A stretch of DNA of 64,000 bases from the NCBI GenBank assembly GCA_029907475.1, contig JARYLU010000002.1, positions 62,001 to 126,000 of the forward strand. Direction: 5' to 3'. Positions 36,669 through 43,828 of this stretch are shown here, in pieces. The notes beneath the pieces are model-generated. The model was given only the letters and a program-made list of their open reading frames with translations, was not told where the DNA came from and did no database searches. How positions within the stretch are numbered: the stretch's first letter is position 1; every line of letters starts with the position of its first letter. Made by a program: the position numbers and the translations under genes. Origin of the DNA: Bacillota bacterium (GTDB lineage Bacteria > Bacillota > DSM-12270 > Thermacetogeniales > Thermacetogeniaceae).

Positions 36669-38093
36669 GTGGGTAAAATAACTCAAGGTGGAATCGACCA
36701 GGTGAAAAAAGGGGACCTTTTACAGCAATTTTTTTCAGCACGAGACGGGGCGCTCCGCATTCTTTTGGCAGTGGAACGCGAGGGAGCTTATGCAAACCTT
36801 GCCCTGCAGAAGCTAACGCGTTCCTGTCGCCTTAATCCTTCGGAAATGGGTTTATTAACGGAACTTGTATATGGCAGCCTCCGTTTCAGGAACACTCTGG
36901 ATTGGGTAATTAACAAATTCAGTACGGTTCCGGTTGAACGCATGAATTATGTAATTAGAAATATTTTGCGGCTTGGTGCGTATCAATTGCTTTTTTTAGA
37001 GCGGGTTCCGGCTGCTGCTGTTTGCAATGAATCCGTTAATTTAGCGAAGAAATGGAAGCTGGGAGGTCTGGGAGGGTTTGTCAACGGGATCCTTCGTAAC
37101 ATTGTTCGCCACCCGGAGAGGATCGATTATCCGTCGCTAACAGAAGCTCCCGCAGTTCATATCAGTGTAAAGTACTCCCATCCTGTCTGGCTTGTAGAAC
37201 GCTGGTTGAAGCGTTTTGGGGAGGAGGAGACAATTGCCTTATGTAAGACAAACAATGAACCGCCCCCTCTTGTTTTACGCTGTAACACGCTGAAAGTTTT
37301 ACCCGAACAATTACGTAAAATATTAGAGGGAGAGGGGATCTTTGCACAACCAAGCCCTTTGATTTCGGAAGGCCTGAGAGTGTCGCGACTCACTTTTTTA
37401 CCTGAATTAGATTCTTTTCGGGAGGGTTTTTTTGTTGTCCAGGATGAAAGTTCGATGCTTGTCTCCCTGGTCCTGAACCCCCACCCCGGATCCTTCGTCG
37501 TTGACGCATGTAGCGGTCCCGGCGGAAAAACGACTCACCTTGCTCAAATCATGAAAAATCAAGGGGCCATTTTAGCACTTGATGTCCACGAGCACCGCCT
37601 GAAGTTGATCCGGGAGACCTGTCTCAGGCTGGGCATTGCAATTGTGGAGACGCGTCAGCTTGATGCCCGGTTTATCCCCGAAGAGTTATGGGGGAAGGCA
37701 GATTACCTGCTGGTTGATGTTCCCTGTTCTGGTCTCGGTGTGATCAGGCGGCGACCAGATTTGCGGTGGCGCGTCCAGGCTCAAGAACTGCCTCAACACG
37801 CCCAAGAACAGCTGGCGATCCTGAAGGGTGCCCGGAAGTGCTTAAAAGAGGGTGGAGTGCTGATCTACAGCACCTGTTCCACCGAGCCTGAAGAAAATTA
37901 TGATGTAGTTACACGGTTTTTAAGCGAACACCCTGATTTCGAGCCCGAAGACATTGTTTCTTTGATCCCTTTTCCGTCAGTATCTGATGAGGACCGGGTG
38001 TCGGCACGGGGCGGTTATCTCCAGCTTCTGCCGCACCGTCATGGAACAGATGGTTTTTTTCTGGCATGTTTAAGAAAGTTAACCGAAGAGTAG
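36669..38093 (+). CDS. rsmB: 16S rRNA (cytosine-C5) methyltransferase RsmB
   Basis: 474 residues. An N-terminal NusB-like RNA-binding domain covers about 20-160. The SAM motif I is DACSGPGGKTTHLAQ near 280; DVPCSGLG and STCSTEPEE carry the two catalytic-motif cysteines of C5 methyltransferases. It methylates 16S rRNA at the C967-equivalent position. GTG 36669 follows GTAGGAAG; a GTG ten codons on (36702) is a possible alternative because the first residues are not conserved. fhaA starts eight bases downstream. Confidence 0.93.
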   Translation: MGKITQGGIDQVKKGDLLQQFFSARDGALRILLAVEREGAYANLALQKLTRSCRLNPSEMGLLTELVYGSLRFRNTLDWVINKFSTVPVERMNYVIRNILRLGAYQLLFLERVPAAAVCNESVNLAKKWKLGGLGGFVNGILRNIVRHPERIDYPSLTEAPAVHISVKYSHPVWLVERWLKRFGEEETIALCKTNNEPPPLVLRCNTLKVLPEQLRKILEGEGIFAQPSPLISEGLRVSRLTFLPELDSFREGFFVVQDESSMLVSLVLNPHPGSFVVDACSGPGGKTTHLAQIMKNQGAILALDVHEHRLKLIRETCLRLGIAIVETRQLDARFIPEELWGKADYLLVDVPCSGLGVIRRRPDLRWRVQAQELPQHAQEQLAILKGARKCLKEGGVLIYSTCSTEPEENYDVVTRFLSEHPDFEPEDIVSLIPFPSVSDEDRVSARGGYLQLLPHRHGTDGFFLACLRKLTEE

Positions 38094-38101
38094 GTGAGAA
38101 C

Positions 38102-38911
38102 ATGGATTTTCAAGCATGGGAACGGTGGTTGACCAGCTTCTGGGAGGGCGTTTTTCAGAGGAAAAGTAACCGGCCGCTTCAACCCGTAGAGATTGCACGT
38201 GTTCTCGTCAGGGAAATGACCCTCCAGAGACGGGTCAGTGTTTCCCGGATTTACGCTCCTAATGTTTTCACTGTTAGTCTGGGAAAAGCCGATTACGAAA
38301 AGTGTGCCCCTCTTCAGGGGCCCTTTAGCAGAGAACTTGAAGAATATCTCCGGAGTAAAGCCGCAGAAAAGGGGTTTACTTTAATCGGGAGGCCGCAGGT
38401 TTCTTTTATCGAAGAGCCCTCATTAGGAATTGGCGAAATTCGGGTTAAATCGGCATTTGCCTCCCCGGAGGGGACAGAGTACTGTTTTTCTGCCTCCCCC
38501 GGTGAAGAGCGAGACGCGCTGGAGACTGAGGAGCCTTTAACCGGTAGAGCACAGGGGCCAGAAGTTCACCAGATTGATCACACGATGGTTTTTAATAAAA
38601 AAGAGCTCCAGGAAAAGGGAAAATTTTTTCTCAGGGTAGTTCGAGGGCCTGACCAGGGAAAGGCTTTTCCTCTTGCCGGAGAAAGGCAATACATGATCGG
38701 CCGGAAAAATTCAAATCAGATCGTGCTTTCGGACTTAAACACTTCTCGGGAGCATGCCCTGATCGAGTGGCGGGATGGTAACCTTTTTCTGACAGATCTT
38801 CAGAGCCGGAACGGCACCCTGGTAAATGGCACTCCGATTCAACAGCAGCGCCTGAAGGTTGGTGATAAAATCCAGATTGGAGAAAATGTCTTGCAAGTCG
38901 AAGGGGGCTGA
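38102..38911 (+). CDS. FhaA-like protein (DUF3662 + FHA domain)
   Basis: 269 residues. The N-terminal DUF3662 domain (about 1-120) precedes a variable linker and a C-terminal FHA domain (about 190-268) with the phosphothreonine-binding pattern IGRKNSNQIVL, SREHALI and LQSRNGTLVNG. FHA domains recognise phosphothreonine made by kinases such as the PASTA kinase four kilobases downstream. ATG 38102 follows GTAGGTGAG; an in-frame TTG-type extension into rsmB is unlikely. In actinobacteria the homologue sits at the head of the same wall-synthesis cluster. Confidence 0.85.
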   Translation: MDFQAWERWLTSFWEGVFQRKSNRPLQPVEIARVLVREMTLQRRVSVSRIYAPNVFTVSLGKADYEKCAPLQGPFSRELEEYLRSKAAEKGFTLIGRPQVSFIEEPSLGIGEIRVKSAFASPEGTEYCFSASPGEERDALETEEPLTGRAQGPEVHQIDHTMVFNKKELQEKGKFFLRVVRGPDQGKAFPLAGERQYMIGRKNSNQIVLSDLNTSREHALIEWRDGNLFLTDLQSRNGTLVNGTPIQQQRLKVGDKIQIGENVLQVEGG

Positions 38912-38914
38912 GCG

Positions 38915-40633
38915 ATGATCTGGATCACTTTAGCCCTCAAGTATCATATTTTAATTTTGCTTTCTATATTTTTCTTTTGGGTAATTTCTTTAATGATTAA
39001 AGAAATAAGAGGGGAGCAGTTTGCCTCTGACCCGGAAACTGCACTAAAGGTTCTTCTTTCCCAATGCCTTTCAGTAGCACCCGGAATAAAGTGGAGACTT
39101 AAAAACGAAGCAATAATTGGTAGAGCCCCGGATTGTGATATCACACTCCCGGACCACTACGTTTCTTCTCATCACGCCAGGATATACCTCTCCGCAGGGG
39201 AGTATTTCGTAGAAGACCTGGGCAGTACCAATGGGACTTTTTTAAATAACAAACCTCTTTTAGCCGCGGCACGGATCACGCCCGGGGACCAACTGGAGAT
39301 TGGTCGGGTTATCTTTACCTTAACGTCTGAATTAAATGTTTCTCGCGTTAAAAGCGTTTCCTACCATCTTTTATCTCTTTCCCCCGGTGTTATCCTGGCC
39401 GCCGGCGGGGCATCCCTTTACTGGGGCGATTTTATCGGCCTGCGTGATTTGGTGGTTTTTTTTCTTGTTGCGTTTTTTCTCAGTACAAGTTCCTTCATTT
39501 ACAATGTTAAAGGGAAGGGGGACCCGTTTTTATTTCTGCTATTTGGGGTCCTGGTTTCACTCAGCTTAATTTTTTTATACCGGATTGATCCCTCCTTTGG
39601 ATTGCGGCAGTCTCTCTGGGTTCTGCTCGGTCTTGCAATCATCTGGCTGATTCAGATCTTTCTCCGCAATTATCAACGTTTAACAGATTATAAATACCTT
39701 TTTATTGCCTTTGGAATGATCTTTCTCTTTCTCACGATTTTATTGGGGACAGAAGCAGGAGGAGCGCGCAGTTGGCTTGCTCTGGGTTCTTTTCGTTTTC
39801 AACCTTCAGAAGCTGTGAAAATTTTTATGGTTATTTTCTTGGCAGGATACCTGGATGAGAACCGGGAAATTTTCACGCAGGGAACGAGCAAAATCGGCCC
39901 TTTTTTAGTACCGGATTGGCCTTATCTGGGCCCTTTGCTGGCCACTTGCGGCCTTTCTTTATTGCTTCTGGTTTTCCAACGCGATTTGGGGATGGCCCTC
40001 CTTTTTTTTACCGCTTTTTTGGTGATGGTTTATATTGCTACCCATCGTTTTTCGTATTTTTTAATAGGGATACTTCTTTTTCTTGGAGGTGCCGTTCTGT
40101 GCTATCACCTTTTTCCCCATGTCCAGGCCAGGATTGCGGTATATATTAACCCCTGGCAGTTTGCAGAGGGCGGTGGCTACCAAATTATTCAATCACTTTT
40201 TGCCCTCGGAAACGGAGGTCTTTTTGGCTGGGGTTTAGGGAGTGGTTTTCCTGAGTTAATTCCTGCTGTTCATACCGATTTTATTTTTTCTCTAATTGGA
40301 GAAGAACTGGGGTTAGCCGGTACTTTGAGCATTGTCACCCTCTACCTGTTATTCGTCTGGCGGGGATTACGGCTCGCCCTCCAGGTTCCCGAAGGGTTTG
40401 GTTCTTTGCTGGTATTCGGATTCAGCTCCCTGTTGGCTTTACAAACTTTAATTATCTTGGGAGGGGTCGTTAATCTCATCCCTTTAACGGGAATCCCTTT
40501 ACCTTTTCTGAGTTACGGAGGAAGTTCCCTCATTTCTAACTGCTTCTTAACCGGAACCTTGCTGAAGGTAAGTGAAGAGGTAAAAGCGGAACAGGGGAGA
40601 AAAGGTTATGCAAGATTCCATCAGGAAATTTAG
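38915..40633 (+). CDS. Fusion of an FHA domain with an FtsW/RodA/SpoVE-type lipid II polymerase
   Basis: 572 residues. One membrane segment (about 9-30) leads to a cytoplasmic FHA domain (about 60-140) with IGRAPDCDITL, SSHHARI and LGSTNGTFLNN. Ten or so membrane helices of an FtsW/RodA (SEDS) glycosyltransferase follow, from about 155 to 555, with EAGGARSWL, FQPSEAVKIF and LPFLSYGGSS. SEDS proteins polymerise lipid II with a class B PBP; here the PBP gene overlaps by 26 bases. In actinobacteria FhaB and RodA are separate proteins. The fusion lets a kinase-dependent phosphothreonine partner bind the polymerase directly (inference). Confidence 0.9.
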   Translation: MIWITLALKYHILILLSIFFFWVISLMIKEIRGEQFASDPETALKVLLSQCLSVAPGIKWRLKNEAIIGRAPDCDITLPDHYVSSHHARIYLSAGEYFVEDLGSTNGTFLNNKPLLAAARITPGDQLEIGRVIFTLTSELNVSRVKSVSYHLLSLSPGVILAAGGASLYWGDFIGLRDLVVFFLVAFFLSTSSFIYNVKGKGDPFLFLLFGVLVSLSLIFLYRIDPSFGLRQSLWVLLGLAIIWLIQIFLRNYQRLTDYKYLFIAFGMIFLFLTILLGTEAGGARSWLALGSFRFQPSEAVKIFMVIFLAGYLDENREIFTQGTSKIGPFLVPDWPYLGPLLATCGLSLLLLVFQRDLGMALLFFTAFLVMVYIATHRFSYFLIGILLFLGGAVLCYHLFPHVQARIAVYINPWQFAEGGGYQIIQSLFALGNGGLFGWGLGSGFPELIPAVHTDFIFSLIGEELGLAGTLSIVTLYLLFVWRGLRLALQVPEGFGSLLVFGFSSLLALQTLIILGGVVNLIPLTGIPLPFLSYGGSSLISNCFLTGTLLKVSEEVKAEQGRKGYARFHQEI

Positions 40634-41996
40634 CGTTTTTATTATCGGATGTTTTCTCATTTACTCGTCTTATCTGATTTATCTCCAACTCTGGAAAGGG
40701 CCTGCATTGAGTAATAATAGCGCAAACCCGCGCTCCTGGCTGCTGGAGAAGCGCGTGATCCGAGGAGGAATCTATGCACGTGAAGGCGAAAAAATAGCAG
40801 AAAGCATTCGCCTGGGAGAGAAAATATCAAGGTACTATCCATTTGGGTCCCTTTATGCTCATCTCGTTGGCTATCATACCCGGCGTTTAGGTAAAACGGG
40901 TTTAGAAGAAGTCTATGACCAAGAGCTTTTAGGCCTGAAAGGTTCGATTATAAAAAACTGGGTTGTACGATGGGGGTTAAAGGAAGTCCAGGGTAATGAC
41001 CTTCACCTTACGATTAGTCATAAACTCCAGGAAAGAGCCTGGCGCTTACTTGCACCTTACCACGGCGCGGCCGTTGTTCTCAATCCTCAAACTGGGGAAA
41101 TTCTGGCCATGGTGAGTACGCCGAGCTTTGATCCAAATGCTCAAAATCTTGAGGATAGCTGGGAGAAGCTCAAAAAGAGTCCGGAGCACCAGCTTTTGAA
41201 TAGGGCTACCGCCGGTTTATATCCACCCGGTTCGACAATGAAAATAGTGACCGCGGCAATTGGCGTTCAAGAGTTTCCTCAACTCCCAAATGATCGCTTC
41301 TTTTGTGAGGGGGAACTGGAAATTCAGGGAAGGCGTTTACGGGACCTCCGGGCACACGGATGGGTTAATTTAGACCGTGCACTGGCGGTATCTTGCAACA
41401 GTTATTTTGGTAGTTTGGGACTGCGGTTGGGAGCTAGCCGTTTTGCGAATGGACTCCGGGATTTTGGGTGGGGGGAGGGGGTTCCTTTTGAATTACCAGG
41501 AGCACCAATTCCTTTACGCGAAGAAAGTTTCTCGAATGCAAATGGCCTCGCTGAGGCTGCGATAGGACAGGGAGAAATACTTGTAAGCCCTTTATTTATG
41601 GCTCTTGTAACCGGTTCCCTCGGAAATGGCGGGGTAATGATGAAACCCTACTTGGTCCGCGAAATCCGGAGTCCCGAAGGTGCTGTGATTTGGAAAACCC
41701 AACCTCAAATTTTAAGGCGGGCCGTGCCCCCTGCGGTTGCGGCACGAGTACGGGAAGCAATGATTGAGGTTGTTGAGCGCGGTACGGGAACTGCTGCGAC
41801 TCTTCCGGGAATTCAGGTGGCGGGTAAAACCGGTTCTGCGGAGAACCCGGAAGGCCCGCCTCATGCCTGGTTTATCGCCCTTGCTCCCGCCGCGCAACCT
41901 CGCGTTGTAGTATGCGTTTTAATCGAGCACGGAGGGCAGGGGGGCAAAGTAGCGGCCCCTATTACCCGGGAATTGCTGGAACTTGCCTTATCCTGA
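40608..41996 (+). CDS. Class B penicillin-binding protein (PbpA-like transpeptidase)
   Basis: 462 residues, anchored by one N-terminal helix (about 9-27). The three active-site motifs are S209-T-M-K, S262-C-N and K407-T-G. There is no glycosyltransferase domain and no PASTA repeats; the short dimerisation domain resembles PbpA of the actinobacterial rodA-pbpA pair. It crosslinks peptidoglycan together with the SEDS polymerase encoded just upstream. ATG 40608 lies inside the end of that gene, which indicates coupled translation. Confidence 0.92.
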   Translation: MQDSIRKFSVFIIGCFLIYSSYLIYLQLWKGPALSNNSANPRSWLLEKRVIRGGIYAREGEKIAESIRLGEKISRYYPFGSLYAHLVGYHTRRLGKTGLEEVYDQELLGLKGSIIKNWVVRWGLKEVQGNDLHLTISHKLQERAWRLLAPYHGAAVVLNPQTGEILAMVSTPSFDPNAQNLEDSWEKLKKSPEHQLLNRATAGLYPPGSTMKIVTAAIGVQEFPQLPNDRFFCEGELEIQGRRLRDLRAHGWVNLDRALAVSCNSYFGSLGLRLGASRFANGLRDFGWGEGVPFELPGAPIPLREESFSNANGLAEAAIGQGEILVSPLFMALVTGSLGNGGVMMKPYLVREIRSPEGAVIWKTQPQILRRAVPPAVAARVREAMIEVVERGTGTAATLPGIQVAGKTGSAENPEGPPHAWFIALAPAAQPRVVVCVLIEHGGQGGKVAAPITRELLELALS

Positions 41997-42010: not shown

Positions 42011-43828
42011 ATGGTTGGAACAATTTTAGGTAAGAGATACGAGATTCTTGCAAAGCTTGGTTCCGGAGGCATGGCCCACGTTTACCAGGCCAGGTGCACG
42101 ATCTTGAACCGGATCGTGACCGTAAAAATTCTACGCGCCGAGTTAGCAGAGGATAAGGAATTCGTCAACCGGTTTCAGCGTGAGGCCCAGACCGTTGCGA
42201 GTCTTTCTCACCCGAATATTGTAAGTATATATGACGTTGGAGAAGAAAACGGGGTTCCCTACCTTGTGATGGAGTACGTAGAGGGATCCAATCTCAAAGA
42301 AATTGTTCAAAGGGAGGGGTCGCTTTCCCCGGCAGAAGTAATTAATATCGGGACCCAGGTTTGTGCTGCGCTTACCCATGCTCATGAAAGGGGAATCATT
42401 CATCGAGACATTAAACCCCATAACATTTTAGTGACACCAACGGGGCGGGTGAAAGTAACGGATTTCGGATTGGCAAGGGTTCTCTCTCTGCCCAGCGCCA
42501 CTCAATCGGGGTCGGTGATGGGTTCGGTTCATTATTTTTCTCCGGAACAAGCGCGGGGTGAAGAGGCAGGACCGAAATCAGATCTCTATTCTTTGGGAAT
42601 CGTCCTTTACGAATTGGCGACAGGGCGCGTACCTTTTCGCGGTGATAATCCGATTTCGGTGGCTCTCAAACACTTACAAGAGCCGCCTCCGCTGCTCAGC
42701 AAAGAGAAGCCCATGATTCCTCGGGGGTTGGAAGAGATTATTTTGAAGGCGATGGCAAAAAAGCCGGAGCAGCGTTTTATCTCCGCAAGAGAAATGCAAA
42801 AGGCGTTAGCAGAAGGGTTTGTTGCGGAACTGGATGACTTGAATGAGAATCACGGCATGGGTTTCCCCCGCCCAACTTTTGAGAAACCGGAAGGTTTTGC
42901 GCGCTGGCGCCGCCTCCATCCTGCTGCGTGGGTGGCACTGGCGGTTTTCCTGCTCATGCTCGCGGCAGGAAGTGTTTGGGCTGCATCGAGCTGGTTTTTT
43001 ACAAAGGATGTAGCCACTCCTTCCCTTACCGATATTCCCTTTGCGGAGGCGGAATCGAAAATCAAAGCTATGGGGCTTCGCTGCCAGGTCCATAAAATCT
43101 ATGATTCTCATGTTCCTGCCGGGATTGTTACACGGCAGAGCCCGCTGCCAGGAACCCCTGTGAAAAAGGGGCGTATTGTTGAGTTATGGGTTAGTAAAGG
43201 GCCTCGCCTCGTGTGGTTGCCCGATGTAAGGGGTTATCCCCTAAGAGAAGCAAAGACTCTCCTTGCGAACGCAGGTTTTCAGGTTAAAGTGGAAGAAGCA
43301 TATAACGAGGAGGTTCCAGCGGAGGCCGTTGTGAGGCAGGTACCTGCCGGGGATCGGGAGGTATCCGAGGGACATGAGGTGCGTTTGGTGGTTAGCAAGG
43401 GGCCACCCCCCGGAAATCTTGTGATGCCCTCCTTGCTCGGCCTTAATGTCGAGCAGGCCCGTGTGGTCCTGGACGGCCTGGGGCTTGTTTTGGGTGAAAT
43501 TAGGGAAGAAACAAGTGTTGACTATCCAGAGGGAATTATTTTCAGCCAAAGTATTAGCCAGGGCACGCCGGTCCGCTCCGGCGAGGTCGTTAACGTTACC
43601 CGAAGCAAGGGCCCCGGCCCGCAGCAGCGAATTGTTCCATTAGAATTAAAAGTGCGTGACTCTGGAGAAGTCAAGATCGTCGTCCAGGATGCGCGGGGGA
43701 CACGTGTTGATTATCAGCAATTCCACAAGGCAGGGGAGAAGGTTAAGAAAGAAATAACTGTCTTTGGTTCCGGGGAGATCCAGGTCTATTTCCAGGGCCA
43801 ACTGTTTGATAAATACTCCATAGATTAG
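42011..43828 (+). CDS. prkC: PASTA-domain serine/threonine protein kinase (PrkC/PknB-like)
   Basis: 605 residues. The kinase domain (about 10-270) has the glycine loop GSGGMAHVY, the ATP-binding Lys39, HRDIKPHN and DFGLAR. A single membrane helix (about 307-325) is followed by three extracellular PASTA repeats (about 335-540), each ending in a SKGP-like motif, and a 60-residue beta-rich tail. Such kinases sense muropeptides or lipid II and control wall growth and spore germination. Likely partners are the two FHA proteins of the same operon. No PP2C phosphatase gene is in the cluster. Confidence 0.94.
   Translation: MVGTILGKRYEILAKLGSGGMAHVYQARCTILNRIVTVKILRAELAEDKEFVNRFQREAQTVASLSHPNIVSIYDVGEENGVPYLVMEYVEGSNLKEIVQREGSLSPAEVINIGTQVCAALTHAHERGIIHRDIKPHNILVTPTGRVKVTDFGLARVLSLPSATQSGSVMGSVHYFSPEQARGEEAGPKSDLYSLGIVLYELATGRVPFRGDNPISVALKHLQEPPPLLSKEKPMIPRGLEEIILKAMAKKPEQRFISAREMQKALAEGFVAELDDLNENHGMGFPRPTFEKPEGFARWRRLHPAAWVALAVFLLMLAAGSVWAASSWFFTKDVATPSLTDIPFAEAESKIKAMGLRCQVHKIYDSHVPAGIVTRQSPLPGTPVKKGRIVELWVSKGPRLVWLPDVRGYPLREAKTLLANAGFQVKVEEAYNEEVPAEAVVRQVPAGDREVSEGHEVRLVVSKGPPPGNLVMPSLLGLNVEQARVVLDGLGLVLGEIREETSVDYPEGIIFSQSISQGTPVRSGEVVNVTRSKGPGPQQRIVPLELKVRDSGEVKIVVQDARGTRVDYQQFHKAGEKVKKEITVFGSGEIQVYFQGQLFDKYSID

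What the first reader, a model, noticed from the sequence alone, without database searches (positions are those of the whole stretch)
38915..40633. FHA domain fused to a SEDS lipid II polymerase
The gene joins a phosphothreonine-binding FHA domain to an FtsW/RodA-type polymerase in one uninterrupted frame, in an operon with the class B PBP and the PASTA kinase. In actinobacteria FhaB and RodA are separate. The fusion would place the polymerase directly under kinase control.
Basis: partly seen in the sequence, partly recalled or inferred. Interest (0 to 1): 0.55.

Follow-up and report, generated by a model that had tools for sequence, protein, structure and literature searches.

The report
FhaB fused to a RodA-type polymerase
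A small bacterial lineage has welded a protein that reads phosphate tags onto a cell-wall-building enzyme, and the same lineage has mostly lost the usual matching phosphatase, which points to RodA as the partner of the free tag reader FhaB.

Summary
Window 38915-40633 is one open frame of 572 aa: a membrane helix, an FHA domain, then a SEDS polymerase. It is not a sequencing error: the uninterrupted fusion occurs in 18 of 20 genomes of the window's class (one family), including the complete chromosome of cultured Thermacetogenium phaeum. G009 is split at contig ends; G005 keeps the helix and SEDS but lacks the FHA. Phosphothreonine-binding motif residues (GR, SxxH, NG) are invariant in 19 of 19 FHA copies.

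The N-terminal part is FhaB. Many related families show fhaA-fhaB-pstP-rodA-pbpA-pknB; here pstP is gone and fhaB runs into rodA. The Stp/PstP-type phosphatase has no match in 18 of 20 genomes of the class, but is missing from only 6 of 383 other sampled genomes of the phylum. All 41 genomes searched keep the PASTA kinase. The window's own genome has three PP2Cs elsewhere, so it is not phosphatase-free.

Best reading: FhaB works on RodA, and the fusion makes this permanent. Binding and regulation are inferred. Ten library searches found no description; other phyla could not be searched. New variant of a known kind.

The parts
38066..38911 (+). FhaA-type protein (FhaA_N + FHA), directly upstream; 3-bp gap to the fusion
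   Evidence: Pfam PF12401 1.4e-31 and PF00498 2e-20; ORF coordinates
38915..40633 (+). FhaB::RodA fusion, 572 aa
   Evidence: single frame; Pfam FHA + FTSW_RODA_SPOVE; conserved in 18 of 20 genomes of the class
38942..38998 (+). N-terminal membrane helix (aa 10-28), the FhaB anchor
   Evidence: hydropathy 2.38; a helix of the same kind precedes the FHA in free FhaB proteins of other families, 17 of 20 above the script's threshold
39092..39322 (+). FHA domain (aa 60-136); R70 at 39122-39124, S84 at 39164-39166, H87 at 39173-39175, N106 at 39230-39232
   Evidence: residues invariant in 19 of 19 copies; dN well below dS in within-genus pairs
39323..39370 (+). variable linker (aa 137-152) between FHA and SEDS part
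   Evidence: aa 137-150: 12% mean identity to the window across 17 relatives
39371..40582 (+). SEDS part: two extra N-terminal helices (aa 153-199) and SEDS core (aa 206-556); D455 at 40277-40279
   Evidence: alignment with solved FtsW/RodA; D455 in 20 of 20; the two helices from hydropathy
40608..41996 (+). class B PBP (PbpA-type dimerisation domain), overlaps the fusion by 26 bp
   Evidence: PF00905 2.9e-60, PF21922 2.5e-10
42011..43828 (+). PASTA Ser/Thr kinase
   Evidence: NF033483 580 bits, cut-off 450

Best explanation
This is a true gene fusion of FhaB (membrane helix + phosphothreonine-reading FHA domain) with the operon's RodA-type SEDS polymerase, which most likely arose once in the ancestor of this family, where the phosphatase gene pstP was lost from between them. 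Shown: the architecture, its conservation, the intact FHA and SEDS key residues, the absence of the phosphatase gene. Inferred: in the ancestral system FhaB already acts on RodA; in the fusion the FHA, on the cytoplasmic side, binds a threonine phosphorylated by the neighbouring PASTA kinase (on the kinase itself, FhaA or another membrane partner) and so brings the RodA-PBP pair to, or switches it at, the site where the kinase senses wall material.
For: One frame in 18 of 20 genomes of the class, one a finished chromosome. FHA GR/SxxH/NG residues invariant, 19 of 19, and dN below dS. The N-terminal helix resembles that of free FhaB proteins. Gene order: fhaA-fhaB-pstP-rodA-pbpA-pknB in many related families, the same order without pstP here. 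The f1 SEDS proteins are one clade, 100/100; fused FHAs are one clade, 99/97, together with one row labelled fhaB that I take to be the cut G009 piece (the tree was not drawn). In five other genomes (G102, G241, G211, G045, G366) fhaB stays 8-84 bp from rodA-pbp with no matched kinase or PP2C in the 15-18 kb fetched, so the fhaB-rodA link outlives the link to the kinase. Literature passages: FhaA/FhaB read phospho-Thr and share the operon with rodA, pbpA, kinases and the phosphatase; rodA, pbpA and fhaB appear together among the hits of one M. tuberculosis Tn-seq screen.
Against: No binding or activity data. G005 lacks the FHA, so the SEDS part can do without it; in the SEDS tree G005 lies outside the other 17 (84/86), so it could also be read as an early-branching form, though it keeps an FhaB-like helix. 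In mycobacteria the reported FhaB partner is FtsZ, not RodA. The fusion's FHA scores below the NCBIfam FhaB equivalog cut-off (89 of 125 bits), and the FHA tree prefers FhaB over FhaA only by 4 against 6 changes. The structure model was too poor to show any FHA-SEDS contact. The window's own genome has PP2Cs elsewhere.
Confidence: 0.55

Rival explanations
1. The fusion is functionally neutral: pstP was lost, fhaB and rodA became adjacent, a stop codon was lost and the two proteins merely travel together; the FHA keeps its old FhaB job on other partners (for example a divisome protein), and the SEDS is not regulated by it.
For: Free FhaB and RodA are neighbours in several families and the fusion needs only small changes. 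G005 lacks the FHA while keeping the polymerase. The linker is variable.
Against: A neutral fusion is expected to break now and then; 18 of 20 genomes keep it and none of the 20 was seen with a free fhaB before rodA, G009 being cut. fhaB stays beside rodA even where the kinase and phosphatase are not in the stretch.
Confidence: 0.27
2. The FHA binds a phosphothreonine within the same protein, so the fusion is autoinhibited or self-activated by phosphorylation of its own tail, as in GarA/OdhI.
For: GarA and OdhI are among the solved structures matched by the FHA part; their intramolecular switching is recalled.
Against: The segments around the FHA are among the most variable of the protein (12-33% identity), and no conserved threonine there was apparent by eye in the alignment.
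Confidence: 0.1
3. Sequencing or assembly error that joins two frames.
For: The window is from a draft genome of 114 contigs.
Against: The same fusion in 18 genomes of the class, one a finished chromosome.
Confidence: 0.01

Closest known systems
Actinobacterial fhaA-fhaB-pstP-rodA-pbpA-pknA-pknB cluster
   Same: Same kinds of genes: two FHA proteins, RodA-type SEDS, PbpA and PASTA kinase (passages); the exact full order with pknA is partly recalled.
   Different: FhaB and RodA are one polypeptide here; no pstP in the operon; one kinase, no pknA.
Free FhaB/FipA (Rv0019c type, NF049868)
   Same: N-terminal membrane helix followed by a canonical FHA, as in free FhaB of related families.
   Different: Below the equivalog cut-off (89 against 125 bits); continues into a SEDS protein.
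RodA/FtsW SEDS polymerases (PF01098)
   Same: Full-length SEDS core with the conserved HTDF aspartate.
   Different: An FHA module and its anchor precede it; RodA and FtsW equivalog models both below cut-off.
SEDS::PBP single-ORF fusions in other families of the phylum
   Same: Another fusion of neighbouring genes in the same operon (G080, G313, G295, G332).
   Different: They join polymerase and transpeptidase, not a phospho-reader.

Membership tests
FHA domain (PF00498) | profile match over gathering score | tested here: met
   74 bits, cut-off 20.7
FHA domain (PF00498) | GR, SxxH, NG phosphothreonine motifs | tested here: met
   invariant in 19 of 19 copies; motif definition seen in passages of PMC1262709
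FHA domain (PF00498) | binds phosphothreonine peptides | not testable with these tools
   needs protein
SEDS polymerase (PF01098) | profile match over gathering score, full length | tested here: met
   272.6 bits, 10-354 of 356
SEDS polymerase (PF01098) | conserved aspartate of the HTDF motif | tested here: met
   D455 in 20 of 20, aligned to the HTDF of solved RodA; its catalytic role is recalled
RodA equivalog (TIGR02210) | score over curated cut-off | tested here: not met
   237.4 of 336.7 bits
FtsW equivalog (TIGR02614) | score over curated cut-off | tested here: not met
   270.9 of 337.5 bits
FhaB/FipA equivalog (NF049868) | score over curated cut-off | tested here: not met
   89.1 of 125 bits
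FhaB/FipA equivalog (NF049868) | membrane helix before the FHA, gene between fhaA and the rodA-pbpA pair | tested here: met
PASTA kinase (NF033483) | score over curated cut-off (downstream gene) | tested here: met
   580 bits, cut-off 450

The most novel reading that the evidence does not exclude
The fusion reveals the general, unrecognised job of FhaB: it is the dedicated phosphothreonine-reading subunit of the operon's RodA-PbpA synthase across Bacillota and Actinobacteria. In this lineage the subunit became permanent when the cognate phosphatase was lost, giving a wall-synthesis switch written by a PASTA kinase with no matching eraser in most members.
Probability: 0.33. Interest if true: 0.75.

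Novelty: new variant of a known kind. Interest (0 to 1): 0.5.

Why it matters
How PASTA kinases reach the SEDS polymerases is, to my knowledge, an open question; in mycobacteria FhaB is tied to FtsZ. A class-wide natural fusion of FhaB with RodA is Rosetta-stone evidence for a physical partnership, testable at once by two-hybrid or pull-down of free FhaB and RodA in harmless actinobacteria. The near class-wide absence of the Stp/PstP phosphatase beside a kept kinase asks how such a signal is reset. G005 offers a natural FHA deletion for comparison.

Tried and rejected
Other fusions in the phylum: the rows outside the class that ran from FHA into SEDS with the query starting before aa 70 (G090, G211, G241, G045) each carried a stop inside the match; on inspection they, and G049 and G366, are adjacent separate ORFs. 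Rows with long frames G186, G339, G366, G139, G049, G090 showed no FHA in the SEDS ORF; G390, G194, G392, G118, G180, G252 and the second G224 row were not opened. The scan used E <= 1e-60, so it covers 141 of 398 genomes only, and 15 of these are f1; the list of matches was also cut at its end.

A replacement phosphatase: weak PF13672 partial matches in five f1 genomes and one in G018; the one opened (G012) is a SpoIIE-like protein next to a tilS-like gene (both names partly by eye), not an Stp relative. A PP2C tree meant to place the window genome's own PP2Cs was unresolved with long branches.

AlphaFold model of the fusion with nine rows: mean pLDDT 51, pTM 0.34; not used, and no fold search was run. 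A promoter and terminator scan gave about as many promoter-like sites as the shuffles (9 against 8.0) and was not used.

Other phyla: genome contigs allowed one scan, whose eight loci were all close relatives; no handle outside the phylum was obtained. Whether protein databases already list FHA + FTSW_RODA_SPOVE architectures elsewhere was not tested.

Full report
Observation. The window carries one uninterrupted frame at 38915-40633, 572 aa. Pfam finds FHA at aa 67-130 and FTSW_RODA_SPOVE at aa 206-556, both far over the gathering scores. Upstream, 3 bp away, is an FhaA-type protein; downstream are a class B PBP (26-bp overlap) and a PASTA kinase over its cut-off.

Is it real? In the window's class, which in the held set is one family of 20 genomes (f1), 18 of 20 have the whole fusion in one frame. 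G009 is cut by contig ends: the FHA runs to near the end of one contig and the SEDS begins at the end of another. G005 has a 444-aa protein with an FhaB-like N-terminal helix and the SEDS part but no FHA. G006 is a single contig of 2,939,057 bp, the size given for the finished Thermacetogenium phaeum chromosome (abstract and passage of PMC3551663); I take it to be that organism. Named relatives are Thermacetogenium, Syntrophaceticus, Syntrophomonadaceae and Clostridia MAGs or isolates. A sequencing error is therefore excluded.

Which parts are joined. The first part is FhaB. It has a membrane helix before the FHA, as do 17 of 20 free FhaB proteins tested, with a visibly similar motif, and it sits between fhaA and the rodA-pbpA pair. 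The FHA tree needs 4 label changes if the fused FHAs count as FhaB and 6 if they count as FhaA; it is short and poorly resolved. NCBIfam FhaB is matched below its cut-off. The FHA motif residues GR, SxxH and NG (definition seen in passages of PMC1262709) are invariant in 19 of 19 copies. In within-genus pairs dN in the FHA is well below dS (for example 0.074 against 0.446, G004-G011); several pairs are saturated in dS. The SEDS core is 70% identical on average to the window's, the FHA 52%, the linkers 12-33% (17 relatives). The HTDF aspartate is present in 20 of 20 and aligns with that of solved RodA. RodA and FtsW equivalog models are both below cut-off, and the own genome has further SEDS genes, so I write RodA-type.

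What surrounds it elsewhere. I opened the locus in 30 genomes outside f1. Many show fhaA-fhaB-pstP-rodA-pbpA-pknB (for example G032, G031, G030, G036, G020, G022, G035, G224, G064, G139, G186). None shows FHA and SEDS in one ORF. In G102, G241, G211, G045 and G366 fhaB lies 8-84 bp before rodA-pbp and the fetched 15-18 kb hold no matched kinase or PP2C; in G049 and G090 fhaB and rodA adjoin without pstP but with the kinase. All seven of these keep a PP2C elsewhere. Some loci lack fhaA, fhaB or the PBP altogether (for example G021, G025). The wider scan looked at 398 phylum genomes at E <= 1e-60; 141 matched, 15 of them f1.

The lost phosphatase. NF033484 (Stp/PstP type) matches 2 of 20 f1 genomes and 21 of 21 other relatives; in the phylum sample 378 of 398 match, and the 20 without are 14 of 15 f1 genomes and 6 of 383 others. 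Among the 11 f1 genomes that are at least 90% complete and at most 5% contaminated, 10 lack it. The PASTA kinase is present in 41 of 41. Against a simple 'no phosphatase' story: the window's own genome has three PP2Cs, two over the cut-off, in cassettes with other kinases and FHA proteins (C34 and C5), and G018 has partial ones plus another PP2C beside a vWA-like gene and a kinase-like gene (the last two names by eye). Weak PF13672 matches in other f1 genomes look like SpoIIE in the one opened. The loss is probably one event in one lineage, so the numbers measure its retention, not repeated coincidence with the fusion.

Mechanism. FhaA and FhaB are described as phospho-Thr readers in the operon with rodA, pbpA, kinases and the sole phosphatase (passages of PMC11898655; PMC6554272; PMC3296230). 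In M. tuberculosis FhaB/FipA has been tied to FtsZ (passage of PMC3989709). A Tn-seq table lists pbpA, rodA and fhaB among genes needed more without Rv0954 (passage of PMC8093794). Combined with the fusion and with the fhaB-rodA adjacency that survives without the kinase neighbourhood, the simplest account is that FhaB acts on RodA. How binding changes RodA, by location or by activity, is not shown. A B. subtilis protein, RagB, interacts with RodA and is proposed to stimulate it (passages of PMC12457691), so control of RodA by a small partner has a precedent.

Novelty. Ten library searches brought up no paper that describes an FHA-SEDS fusion; I saw listings and passages only, and most subscription journals and other phyla were not covered. 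It is a new variant of a known operon.

Noticed in passing
L039 5605-6939 (G005): SEDS protein with an FhaB-like N-terminal helix but the FHA domain cleanly missing: a natural FHA deletion or an early-branching form.
   Followed up: partly
L077 7513-10035, L078 7625-10210, L079 6023-8647, L080 6417-9155: SEDS and class B PBP in one ORF (840-912 aa) in four genomes of four other families.
   Followed up: no
L081 7190-9628 (G218): PP2C and SEDS in one 812-aa ORF, while G139 of the same genus has them separate (L082); could be an assembly frameshift.
   Followed up: no
window 42011-43828 and f1 relatives: Second activation-loop threonine (TxT) of the PASTA kinase is serine in 18 of 18 f1 kinases read (20 f1 genomes held); threonine in 17 of 23 others (counted by eye).
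   Followed up: no
L037 7623-15658 (G000:C34): Cassette of two PP2Cs, two non-PASTA kinases and two FHA proteins in the window's own genome.
   Followed up: partly
L038 9258-11987 (G000:C5): FHA, PP2C and kinase cassette in the window's own genome.
   Followed up: no
L079 (G295): Another genome with a PASTA kinase and fhaB but no NF033484 match; its kinase loop also lacks the second threonine and its SEDS is fused to the PBP.
   Followed up: no
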